A DNA stretch of 64,000 nt from Spelaeicoccus albus (lineage in GTDB: Bacteria; Actinomycetota; Actinomycetes; Actinomycetales; Brevibacteriaceae), in NCBI RefSeq assembly GCF_013409065.1, contig NZ_JACBZP010000001.1, positions 1,860,001-1,924,000 of the forward strand, read 5' to 3'. The translations under genes were made by a program, and so were the position numbers. Shown piece after piece: positions 14,748-59,896 of the stretch; the first letter of the stretch is position 1; the number at the start of each line of letters is the position of its first letter. The notes under the pieces are model-generated. The model was not told where the DNA came from. It saw only the letters and a program-made list of their open reading frames with translations, and made no database searches.

Positions 14748-14837
14748 GGAGAGCTGACCGAGCGGCCGAAGGTGGCGGTCTTGAAAACCGCTGTGCAGGT
14801 GATCCCTGCACCGAGGGTTCGAATCCCTCGCTCTCCG
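14748..14837 (+). tRNA. tRNA-Ser (anticodon TGA)
   Basis: A class II tRNA with acceptor stem GGAGAGC/GCTCTCC and a long variable arm (GTGCAGG...CCTGCAC). The T arm has GGTTCGAATCC. The anticodon loop is CTTGAAA, giving UGA, which reads UCA serine codons. G is the discriminator base. The 3' CCA is not encoded (CCG follows). An IS110-type element begins about 70 bp downstream. Confidence 0.95.
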
Positions 14838-14845
14838 CCGCAGGC

Positions 14846-14895: not shown

Positions 14896-14917
14896 CACCG
14901 ACACTTCTATGGTTGTG

Positions 14918-15961
14918 TCAAGCGGTGATGTGTTCGAGGTTTCGGTAGATTTCTCGGGCTATGTAGCGTTTGAGGCTTCGGTGGATGTCGCGGTTGCTGG
15001 CGTCGTGGGTGGTGCGTTTGTCGCGGTATGCCTGGGTGGCGGGGTCGTGGGCGAGTCGGGTCATGGCGATGCGGTGGAGTGCTGAGTTGAGTTGCCGGTC
15101 GCCGTAGCGTGATAGCCGGTGTCGGGTGGTGTTGCCGGAGGATGCTGGTAATGGGGCGGTGCCGGCGAGTTTGGCGAATGCGGCTTCGGTGCGGATGCGG
15201 CCGTGGTGGGAGTAGGCGTTGAGGATTTTCGCGCCGTTGATGGGGCCGACGCCGTTGATGTCGAGGAGGGCTGGCGTGGTGTCGGTGATGATGGTGGCCA
15301 GGCGTTCTCGGTTGGCGGCGAGTTCGGCGGTGAGGTGGTGGATTTCTTTGGCTATGCGGCGGGCTTCGTCGCGGCAGGTGGTGGTGTCGAGGTCGTCGGT
15401 GGTTCGGGTTCGCCAGGCGGCGATGGTGGTGATTTGAGCGTTGGTGATGCCGGTGCGGGCGTCGATGCCGAGGTTGGTGTCGCGGCATAGCGCGGTGAGT
15501 GAGTTTTTCAGCCGGGTGCGGTGGGCGTCGAGGCGTAGGCGGGCGGCGAGGAGCACTGCCAGGGCGTGGCGGGCGCCTGGCGCGCGGGGTGTGATGAGCT
15601 GGTCGGTGTCGGTGCCCAGAATCCCGCGGGCAGCGGTGCGGGCGTCGATGTTGTCGGTCTTACCGGTACCGACTCGGCTGGTTTTGGCTGGTGGGCGCAC
15701 TTCGGTCACTTGCAGGCCGGCGTCGGCCAGCAGGAGGGCCAGTTGGCGCCCGTAGGAGCCGGTTCCCTCGCAGGCGATCAACACGGTGCCGGTGACTTGG
15801 CTGATCCAGGTCAGGGCTCGGGCTAGTCCGGCCGGGTGGGTCGGGAACGTTTTCGTTTTCTCAATGCCGCCGGTGCGGGCGTTGACGAGGGCATAGGTGT
15901 GCGTGCGGGCGTGGGTGTCCACGCCGATGACATGATCGTAGGTGTCTGCGACGATAGTCAT
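14918..15961 (-). CDS. IS110-family transposase (DEDD recombinase)
   Basis: This 347-aa protein has an N-terminal RuvC-like DEDD domain: VIGVDTHARTHTYALVN with the first Asp, IACEGTGSYGRQLA with the Glu, and VGTGKTDNIDARTAAR with the following Asp residues. The C-terminal Transposase_20 domain contains INGVGPINGAKILN (a helix-hairpin-helix-like stretch), FAKLAGTAPLPASSGNTTRHRLS with the conserved Ser, and HRIAMTRL. The ATG at 15961 was chosen for its GAAGGAG Shine-Dalgarno and because it opens directly into the domain. The gene appears intact and may be functional. Confidence 0.93.
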   Translation of the reverse strand: MTIVADTYDHVIGVDTHARTHTYALVNARTGGIEKTKTFPTHPAGLARALTWISQVTGTVLIACEGTGSYGRQLALLLADAGLQVTEVRPPAKTSRVGTGKTDNIDARTAARGILGTDTDQLITPRAPGARHALAVLLAARLRLDAHRTRLKNSLTALCRDTNLGIDARTGITNAQITTIAAWRTRTTDDLDTTTCRDEARRIAKEIHHLTAELAANRERLATIITDTTPALLDINGVGPINGAKILNAYSHHGRIRTEAAFAKLAGTAPLPASSGNTTRHRLSRYGDRQLNSALHRIAMTRLAHDPATQAYRDKRTTHDASNRDIHRSLKRYIAREIYRNLEHITA

Positions 15962-16230
15962 GATGGTTACGTCTCCTTCACGGTTCGTGACTGTCACGGT
16001 GCCGGTCTGGAAATAGTGTGTGGAGGCATCTCCTTTAAGGGCCACACCCCCACATACGGGGTGGGCATACTTCTATCAAGCCTTCGACACGGTCAGGCCG
16101 GCACCGGCCTCTTATCGTGGTCAAGTCGACGCAAAGACACCTCAACAGAGGGGCCGAGTGGTGGAGAGACACGCCACAAGAGACCAGTTACCAGCCTGCC
16201 AGCTAACAACCAGGCCAGCCACACACCAGT
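15962..16230 (-). ncRNA. Candidate bridge RNA region in the IS110 non-coding end
   Basis: IS110 elements are known to express a structured bridge (seek) RNA from a non-coding end, and that RNA base-pairs with target and donor DNA. In this copy the ~270 bp upstream of the transposase has no plausible gene and contains small hairpins: CACCCC/GGGGTG at 16045-16063 and AGGCCG/CGGCCT at 16095-16110. This placement is inferred from the family layout. I could not fold it or match its guide loops to the flanks. Confidence 0.35.
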
Positions 16231-16234
16231 AAAG

Positions 16235-16289
16235 GAGTGGTGGCGAATGGCTGCGAAATCGGCGATTTCGCAGCCATTCGCCACCACTC
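16235..16289. repeat. Perfect 26-bp-arm palindrome, family copy A
   Basis: Arms 16235-16260 and 16264-16289 are fully complementary around a 3-nt centre (GGC). The arm begins GAGTGGTGGCGAATGGCTGC and ends GAAATC. It lies between the IS110 element and the codA stop at 16302, so on the minus strand it can act as the codA transcript terminator, though no T-run follows. Copy B is at 55756-55812 and a short relative is at 39378-39414. Confidence 0.9.
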
Positions 16290-23202: not shown

Positions 23203-23241
23203 CGCCGTCCGGCATCCGCCACCACGCCCCGCCCGCCACGT

Positions 23242-23299
23242 CGAGAGTGGAGTCGTTGTCGGTTTTGAGACCGTCGAACCGACAACAACTCCACTCTCG
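23242..23299. terminator. Long hairpin between convergent genes
   Basis: Arms 23242-23264 and 23277-23299 (23 nt each, one mismatch) flank a 12-nt loop. The left arm begins CGAGAGTGGAGTCGTTGTCG. It lies between the aldo/keto reductase stop (23202) and the fdhA stop (23326), so a bidirectional terminator is the simplest role. The stem is unusually long and lacks a T-run, so a palindromic repeat element is also possible. Confidence 0.65.
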
Positions 23300-23325
23300 G
23301 CGATGGGGAAGCGCGGTAACGGAAG

Positions 23326-39377: not shown

Positions 39378-39414
39378 GAGTGGCGGCGAGCAGCTGGGCG
39401 TTGCGCCACCACTC
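39378..39414. repeat. Short relative of the 16.2/55.8 kb palindrome family
   Basis: GAGTGGCGGCG (39378-39388) and CGCCACCACTC (39404-39414) are inverted repeats with one mismatch and a 15-nt loop. The outer 11 bp match the outer arms of the palindrome at 16235-16289, but the inner part differs. It sits in the 163-bp gap between the ABC exporter start and the S4-protein stop. Confidence 0.5.
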
Positions 39415-55463: not shown

Positions 55464-55555
55464 GGAGACGTCGCATAGTCAGGCCTAGTGCACCACCCTG
55501 CTAAGGTGGAGTCCCCGCAAGGGGACCGAGGGTTCAAATCCCTCCGTCTCCGCCA
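55464..55555 (+). tRNA. tRNA-Ser (anticodon GCT)
   Basis: Acceptor stem GGAGACG/CGTCTCC, anticodon loop CTGCTAA between CCACC and GGTGG (anticodon GCU, reads AGC/AGU), long variable arm GTCCCC...GGGGAC, T loop GGTTCAAATCC. The 3' CCA is encoded (55553-55555) and is itself the start of a long hairpin that follows. Confidence 0.95.
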
Positions 55556-55613
55556 GCCGACAAGAGCCCCCGTCGTCCGTTGATCCGGACGACGGGGGCT
55601 CTTGTCGGCTGGC
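55552..55613 (+). terminator. 28-bp perfect hairpin downstream of tRNA-Ser, overlapping its CCA end
   Basis: Arms 55552-55579 and 55586-55613 are perfectly complementary with a 6-nt loop (TTGATC). The left arm starts at the tRNA discriminator base, GCCAGCCGACAAGAGCCCCC. This is a strong terminator-like stem, but no T-run follows. The CCA end of the tRNA would be buried in the stem until processing. Confidence 0.75.
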
Positions 55614-55755
55614 GGGACCAACCGCGTTTCTTGCGGCAAGTCGCGCAGCCTCGTACGTTCCGCCCGGAATGCACGAGGCCGCGCCGTTTGGCATGGTTGG
55701 TACCGCCCGGGACGACGCTCGGGCCAGGGTGTCGACGTCCGGCGGCCCCATCCAT

Positions 55756-55849
55756 CCAGTGGTGGCGAATGGCTGTGAAATCGCCGATTTCACAGCCATT
55801 CGCCACCACTGGGCAAGGCGGGACAGCCGTTCGCCACCACTGGGCAGGG
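55756..55849. repeat. Perfect 27-bp-arm palindrome, family copy B, with an extra half copy
   Basis: Arms 55756-55782 and 55786-55812 are fully complementary around GCC. The sequence matches copy A at 16235-16289 except for paired substitutions: C to T on one arm with G to A on the other, and a swapped outer pair. A second copy of the right arm (55823-55849) repeats 55792-55818 with two differences. The element lies 37 bp downstream of the MFS stop (55887) on that gene's strand. Confidence 0.9.
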
Positions 55850-57311: not shown

Positions 57312-57351
57312 GAGAAGGGGCGCCGTCCGGCTCGTGACGGCGCCCCTTCTC
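57312..57351 (-). terminator. Terminator-type hairpin downstream of pckG
   Basis: A 16-bp perfect stem (57312-57327 with 57336-57351; left arm GAGAAGGGGCGCCGTC) with an 8-nt loop lies 34 bp beyond the pckG stop on the same strand. No clear T-run is present, which is common for GC-rich actinobacterial terminators. Confidence 0.7.
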
Positions 57352-59852: not shown

Positions 59853-59896
59853 CGAAAACGCGGCCACCCCAGTGAATTGGGGTGGCCGCGTTTTCG
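59853..59896. terminator. Hairpin downstream of the integrase remnant
   Basis: A 19-bp perfect stem (59853-59871 with 59878-59896; left arm CGAAAACGCGGCCACCCCA) has a 6-nt loop. On the minus strand it lies 26 bp beyond the original integrase stop at 59923; on the plus strand it ends in TTTTCG. It is a likely terminator for the integrase gene. The ~200 bp before it (59657-59852) holds no recognisable gene. Confidence 0.7.

What the first reader, a model, noticed from the sequence alone, without database searches (positions are those of the whole stretch)
16235..16289. Family of long palindromes with compensatory base changes
Copy A (16235-16289) and copy B (55756-55812) are near-identical perfect palindromes with 26-27 bp arms 39 kb apart. 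Their few differences are paired on both arms, so base pairing is retained, and a shorter relative sits at 39378-39414. All three are intergenic and downstream of genes. Compensatory change means selection on the hairpin or copying through a hairpin intermediate, as in REP/BIME or other palindromic mobile elements.
Basis: seen in the sequence. Interest (0 to 1): 0.6.

Follow-up and report, generated by a model that had tools for sequence, protein, structure and literature searches.

The report
Actinomycete hairpin repeats at gene ends
The two hairpins are members of a family of at least 68 near-identical, perfectly self-complementary DNA elements scattered between genes, mostly just after gene ends, in this one actinobacterium; they look and behave like the REP/REPIN mini-elements of other bacteria, but the genome lacks the transposase family thought to spread those.

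Summary
A and B are two of at least 68 palindromes in this 4.03-Mb genome (267 sites of the 16-nt arm, 4 expected). They are nearly all 55 nt (two 17-nt arms at fixed spacing), with a variable but still self-complementary centre: 14 of 26 pairs show double changes, 59 double-change cells versus 9.9 in shuffles. Most carry one or more extra arm copies in direct repeat 31 bp outward. All 72 inspected arrays are intergenic, half between convergent genes, median about 28 bp after a stop codon. No copy was found in about 480 other genomes, viral contigs, plasmids or phages. No RAYT/Y1 transposase was found in this genome or its sampled family. A sister genus carries two unrelated palindrome families, one built the same way (fixed-length palindrome plus 19-bp outer units). 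An IS110 (4/4 copies) sits on the palindrome edge, and its non-coding end holds a 10-12-nt match to that target; another IS (3 copies) sits in the palindrome centre. Best reading: REPIN-like non-autonomous elements, maintained or copied as hairpins, probably acting as bidirectional 3'-end structures; the mobilising enzyme is unknown. New variant of a known kind.

The parts
16235..16289 (.). Copy A: 55-nt palindrome (17-nt arm unit F 16235-16251, 21-nt centre, arm unit R 16273-16289)
55756..55812 (.). Copy B: palindrome, arm units F 55757-55773 and R 55795-55811
55826..55842 (-). Outer direct-repeat unit of copy B, 31 bp beyond its R arm
39378..39414 (.). Copy C: degenerate, centre-deleted relative (F-R spacing 20 instead of 38)
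14899..16234 (-). IS110-family element abutting copy A; 4 identical copies in the genome, all at the same point of a palindrome
14918..16045 (-). IS110 transposase gene (DEDD_Tnp_IS110 + Transposase_20)
16153..16164 (-). CCACCACTCGGC in the IS110 non-coding end: identical to the palindrome edge that the IS occupies; putative bridge/seekRNA target guide
   Evidence: 10-12 nt match in the four sites

Best explanation
A REPIN-like family of non-autonomous palindromic elements. Shown: the conserved core is a 55-nt palindrome made of two inverted 17-nt units (consensus GAGTGGTGGCGAATGGC) at a fixed distance of 38 bp with a self-complementary centre of free sequence; it occurs at least 68 times in one genome and was found nowhere else; paired changes are far above the controls; arrays extend outward by 31-bp direct repeats, some plainly by local tandem duplication that copied 14 nt of locus-specific flank. 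Inferred: the element spread inside this lineage as a folded single strand recognised through its 17-nt arms by an enzyme not yet identified (not a Y1/RAYT), and copying through the hairpin keeps the arms identical. Insertions are kept mainly just after stop codons, where the hairpin can serve as a bidirectional transcript end or mRNA 3' stabiliser.
For: Copy number and control; fixed F-R spacing of 38 in 62 of 63 inverted pairs, even with unrelated centres such as ATTTTTCGTAAAAAT; 97% of cells paired, 59 double-change cells vs 9.9 shuffled, slide controls 5-11. Internal control: the two arms mismatch at 19 positions (50 expected on shuffling, minimum 41), while equally close direct units mismatch at 80 (104 expected). 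Double changes (59) far outnumber one-sided ones (10), which fits concerted copying better than stepwise repair. 72/72 arrays intergenic; 36 convergent, p = 2e-7 vs intergenic bp; stop side 28 bp vs start side 111 bp. No other genome searched holds it, nor viral contigs, plasmids, phages. Two IS types use it as a target, as known for REPs (PMC1525189). REPINs in Pseudomonas show the same fixed length, hairpin capacity and compensatory changes (PMC3116915).
Against: No mobilising enzyme was found: no Y1, no reverse transcriptase; the Y2 search was uninformative because its controls were silent. No empty site or insertion polymorphism was seen, since no congener is held. The arms are not individually palindromic as REPs are. 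A functional site kept by selection could give much of the same picture.
Confidence: 0.6

Rival explanations
1. A set of functional 3'-end hairpins (bidirectional terminators or mRNA stabilisers without a U tract) whose sequence was homogenised by recombination; selection on pairing gives the compensatory changes.
For: Median about 28 bp downstream of stop codons; in 20 of 32 convergent cases tabulated both stops lie within 60 bp, leaving little room for another terminator.
Against: Other long hairpins in the same window, which look like ordinary terminators, are unrelated in sequence (55550-55615, 57312-57351, 59853-59896). Termination needs no common 17-nt arm, no fixed 55-nt length and no 31-bp outer units. 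Eight arrays lie between divergent genes. Few G-U intermediates.
Confidence: 0.2
2. Binding arrays of a sequence-specific DNA protein (nucleoid, supercoiling or segregation factor) that binds the 17-nt unit on one face of the helix.
For: Direct spacings are 31 bp (71 times) and 41-42 bp (6 times, each with a different spacer), i.e. about 3 and 4 helical turns (p = 8e-7 against a uniform choice). The units stay conserved although the spacers vary.
Against: Does not need perfect self-complementarity of the free centre, which holds the most strongly covarying pair. Several 31-bp repeats are local duplications, so the spacing is partly inherited. The parallel family in the sister genus has a 19-bp period, not a whole number of turns.
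Confidence: 0.12
3. Neutral by-product of replication: hairpin template switching and slippage keep turning imperfect repeats into perfect palindromes and tandem units, without transposition or selection.
For: Concerted double changes; 31-bp duplications including local flank.
Against: Does not explain dispersal of one shared sequence to at least 68 places or the constant 55-nt length.
Confidence: 0.08

Closest known systems
REPINs (REP doublets forming hairpins; Bertels and Rainey 2011, PMC3116915)
   Same: Two inverted conserved 16-17-mers at fixed distance, variable centre with conserved length and hairpin capacity, common compensatory changes, extragenic, clusters with extra units
   Different: No RAYT found in the genome or family; the arms are not themselves REP hairpins; one continuous stem of 26 bp; extra units at 31 bp in direct orientation
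CGTC-tagged REPs (Di Nocera et al. 2013, PMC3733652)
   Same: No dedicated transposase known; intergenic, near gene ends, head-to-head dimers; the 4 nt before our unit are most often CGCC, sometimes CGTC
   Different: CGTC is a minority variant here; REP stems there are 8-9 bp with 4-5 nt loops
Untagged REP-like families mentioned for M. tuberculosis, D. radiodurans and others (PMC3733652)
   Same: Palindromic repeats without GTAG/CGTC tag; one example is an actinobacterium
   Different: Sequences not compared here
Inverted uptake-signal pairs used as terminators (Haemophilus; PMC5217627)
   Same: Inverted pairs of one short motif at gene 3' ends
   Different: No solitary units inside genes among inspected sites
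IS110-family elements inserting in REPs (ISPpu9, ISPpu10, ISPa11, IS621; PMC1525189)
   Same: IS110 occupying one point of a palindromic repeat in every copy (4/4)
   Different: Different repeat; insertion at the stem foot; guide-like match seen directly in the non-coding end

Membership tests
REP/BIME with RAYT | Dispersed, multicopy, mostly extragenic palindrome | tested here: met
   68 palindromes; 72/72 arrays intergenic
REP/BIME with RAYT | GTAG tetranucleotide at the stem foot | tested here: not met
   Foot is mostly C-G-(C/T)-C then GAGTGG; no GTAG
REP/BIME with RAYT | RAYT (Y1/HUH transposase) in the genome | tested here: not met
   PF01797: 0 in own genome and in 60 family genomes, while the E. 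coli control rings; NF047646 only E = 0.008, under the cut-off; ORFs of at least 250 aa at that locus include ABC-transporter permease-like ones and no RAYT was recognised
REPIN | Two inverted conserved 16-mers at near-constant distance forming one hairpin | tested here: met
   F-R spacing 38 in 62 of 63
REPIN | Variable centre with compensatory change | tested here: met
REPIN | Cognate RAYT flanked by the same repeat | tested here: not met
   No Y1 transposase
REPIN | Excision/insertion intermediates or polymorphic presence | not testable with these tools
   No second strain or population reads held
CGTC REP | CGTC tag, 8-9 bp stem, 4-5 nt loop | tested here: not met
   26-bp stem, 3-nt loop; T at the third tag position in only 13 of 72 spacers
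Rho-independent terminator | GC-rich hairpin followed by a U run near the stop codon | tested here: not met
   Hairpin and position fit but the flanks are G/C-rich without a T run
MITE | Terminal inverted repeats of a resident autonomous IS plus target duplication | tested here: inconclusive
   Neither of the two resident IS examined carries the unit as its end; they are inserted in it. Target duplications of the element itself were not tested
Uptake signal sequence | Thousands of solitary copies, also inside genes | tested here: not met
   267 sites; the 214 inspected are in intergenic arrays or IS-split arrays; 53 not inspected
IS110 with bridge/seekRNA | DEDD + Transposase_20 domains, non-coding end with target match | tested here: met

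The most novel reading that the evidence does not exclude
Some actinomycete lineages carry a class of hairpin mini-elements independent of RAYTs: a fixed-length palindrome built from two inverted copies of a lineage-specific unit, extended outward by direct units at a fixed period (31 bp here, 19 bp in the sister genus), with the unit sequence replaced between genera while the design is kept. They would be spread or maintained by an enzyme that is not a Y1 transposase.
Probability: 0.3. Interest if true: 0.75.

Novelty: new variant of a known kind. Interest (0 to 1): 0.52.

Why it matters
REPINs are taken to depend on RAYTs. Here is a genome, and a sister genus with unrelated sequences of the same design, where REPIN-like elements are numerous and well preserved although no Y1 transposase was found. 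That makes directly testable whether such elements need a RAYT, whether another enzyme can copy hairpins, or whether they survive as useful 3'-end structures.

Tried and rejected
Reverse transcriptase: absent. Y2/IS91 transposase: none, but controls silent, so not informative. RAYT equivalog model gave one sub-cut-off hit at a locus of ABC-permease-like ORFs. Rfam gave only chance microRNA-like hairpin matches at copy A. Genes between neighbouring array pairs are mostly ordinary metabolic or transport genes by sequence appearance; one near 924-925 kb has a weak REase_MTES_1575 match below cut-off. Paper searches on Brevibacterium palindromic repeats (the genus was only a guess at the family) and on REPINs with Actinobacteria returned nothing on this element. 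One fold call failed on length.

Full report
Observation. Copies A and B are perfect palindromes with 27- and 28-nt arms. Their two stem differences are paired and the third difference is the unpaired centre. Both fold far better than shuffled sequence (z = -12 and -13). Copy C is a real but degenerate relative that has lost its centre. Copy B has a further arm unit 31 bp outward.

Extent. The window is 1860001-1924000 of a single-contig 4.03-Mb genome. The 16-nt arm AGTGGTGGCGAATGGC occurs 267 times with up to 2 mismatches, against 4 for the reversed pattern. The loose palindrome pattern matches 68 places, with no control match. Stretches around the listed copies were fetched; they hold 72 arrays and, with A and B, 74. 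They cover 214 of the 267 sites; the other 53 were not inspected.

Anatomy. Where a forward and a reverse unit meet they are 38 bp apart in 62 of 63 cases, giving a 55-nt palindrome. The 21-nt centre varies, sometimes completely (L160, L176, L182, L209), but remains largely self-complementary. Most palindromes carry at least one more unit in direct repeat outside. The spacing is 31 bp in 71 cases and 41-42 bp in six; 62-63 bp cases are about two periods long, and at least one (L209) holds a decayed unit in between. Spacers are C-rich and differ between loci. In several arrays (L158, L196, both L197 arrays, L204, L187, L166) consecutive spacers, or the outer flank and the spacer, are the same or nearly so: local 31-bp tandem duplication that in some cases also copied locus-specific flank. 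Conservation outside the outermost unit ends within about 10 nt.

Covariation. On 44 distinct sequences, 97% of pair cells are standard pairs; 14 of 26 pairs have double changes; 59 double-change cells compare with 9.9 in shuffles (0 of 500 reach it) and 5-11 when partners are slid. Shuffles do not remove shared descent, so an internal control was used: arms of the same palindrome mismatch at 19 positions (shuffled 50, minimum 41), whereas neighbouring direct units at similar distance mismatch at 80 (shuffled 104). The excess is therefore specific to the hairpin. One-sided changes that keep a pair are few (10 cells), which suggests concerted change, by copying one arm from the other or spread of already paired variants, rather than slow mutual repair. 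This is an inference.

Location. Genes were called with a simple codon-usage caller of my own, so borders are approximate. All 72 arrays in the fetched loci are intergenic (13% of the window is intergenic). 36 lie between convergent genes against about 16 expected from intergenic length (p = 2e-7). A few of the 72 are halves of arrays split by an IS, whose neighbours include the IS gene, so these counts are slightly blurred. In co-directional pairs the stop codon is 28 bp away and the next start 111 bp (medians; p = 1e-4). The same placement is described for REPs (PMC3733652).

Distribution. No palindrome in 98 other genomes of the order, 59 of them from the same family, and only one unrelated GC-rich match in 395 other genomes of the phylum sample, which overlaps the first sample slightly. 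None in viral contigs, plasmids or phages. The species name is not known from these tools.

Parallel families. A search of 200-kb samples of six relatives for recurrent long hairpins found none in five (G003, G005, G010, G012, G060) but two families in G002, another genus of the same family. One has the unit AGTGACAGAAC with inverted units 29 bp apart, centres such as ACCACCGTCTACGGTGGT and GACACCGTCTACGGTGTC, and outer direct units every 19 bp. The other is GTGCACTAATTCCnGGTGAGCTCACCnGGAATTAGTGCAC, 13 copies. Neither resembles the family here in sequence. The design, not the sequence, is shared with the first of them.

Enzyme. No Y1 transposase in this genome or in the 60 family genomes searched. 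No reverse transcriptase in six genomes. The Y2 search is uninformative. The mobilising agent, if any, is unknown.

IS targeting. Four identical IS110 copies exist and all four sit at the same point, the foot of a palindrome, with the ends consistent with a TC core. Their non-coding end contains CCACCACTCGGC, matching 10-12 nt across each insertion point; expected occurrence in the whole 64-kb window is 0.02. This fits the guide RNAs described for the family (PMC11187229, PMC11208160). Three copies of a second IS with an integrase core sit in the palindrome centre with 15-bp target duplications.

Conclusion. It works like a REPIN family. It is not filed as REP/BIME or REPIN proper because the GTAG tag and the cognate RAYT were tested and not met. 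New variant of a known kind.

Noticed in passing
window 14899-16234 (-) and L159, L173, L201: IS110 element: 4 identical copies, all inserted at the foot of a palindrome, with a 10-12-nt guide-like match to the target in the non-coding end.
   Followed up: partly
L198, L208, L209: A 1.4-kb IS with integrase-core transposase inserted three times in the palindrome centre, 15-bp target duplications.
   Followed up: partly
L241-L260 (genome G002): Unrelated palindrome family in a sister genus: unit AGTGACAGAAC, fixed spacing 29, covarying centres, outer units at 19-bp period.
   Followed up: partly
L261-L270 (genome G002): Second palindrome family, GTGCACTAATTCCnGGTGAGCTCACCnGGAATTAGTGCAC, 13 copies; some have further TTCCGG/TGTGCAC motifs outside.
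   Followed up: no
window 14748-14839 and 55464-55555: Both palindromes A and B lie near a tRNA-Ser gene (TGA and GCT anticodons).
   Followed up: no
window 55550-55615: Hairpin with 30-nt perfect arms starting inside the 3' end of tRNA-Ser(GCT).
   Followed up: no
window 23239-23302: 26-nt inverted repeat, 92% complementary, 12-nt loop.
   Followed up: no
L186:4232-4269 and L208:1751-1788: Another hairpin present twice in this genome: CGTCGGGAACGCGCCGTC arms.
   Followed up: no
L191:2633-2666 and L191:3015-3048: Hairpin ATTGTGGCCGTGCGAT present twice 380 bp apart beside an array.
   Followed up: no
L301-L310 (genome G060): A repeat containing GTGATCATGCAATCCCGCCACC counted 20 times in 200 kb.
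   Followed up: no
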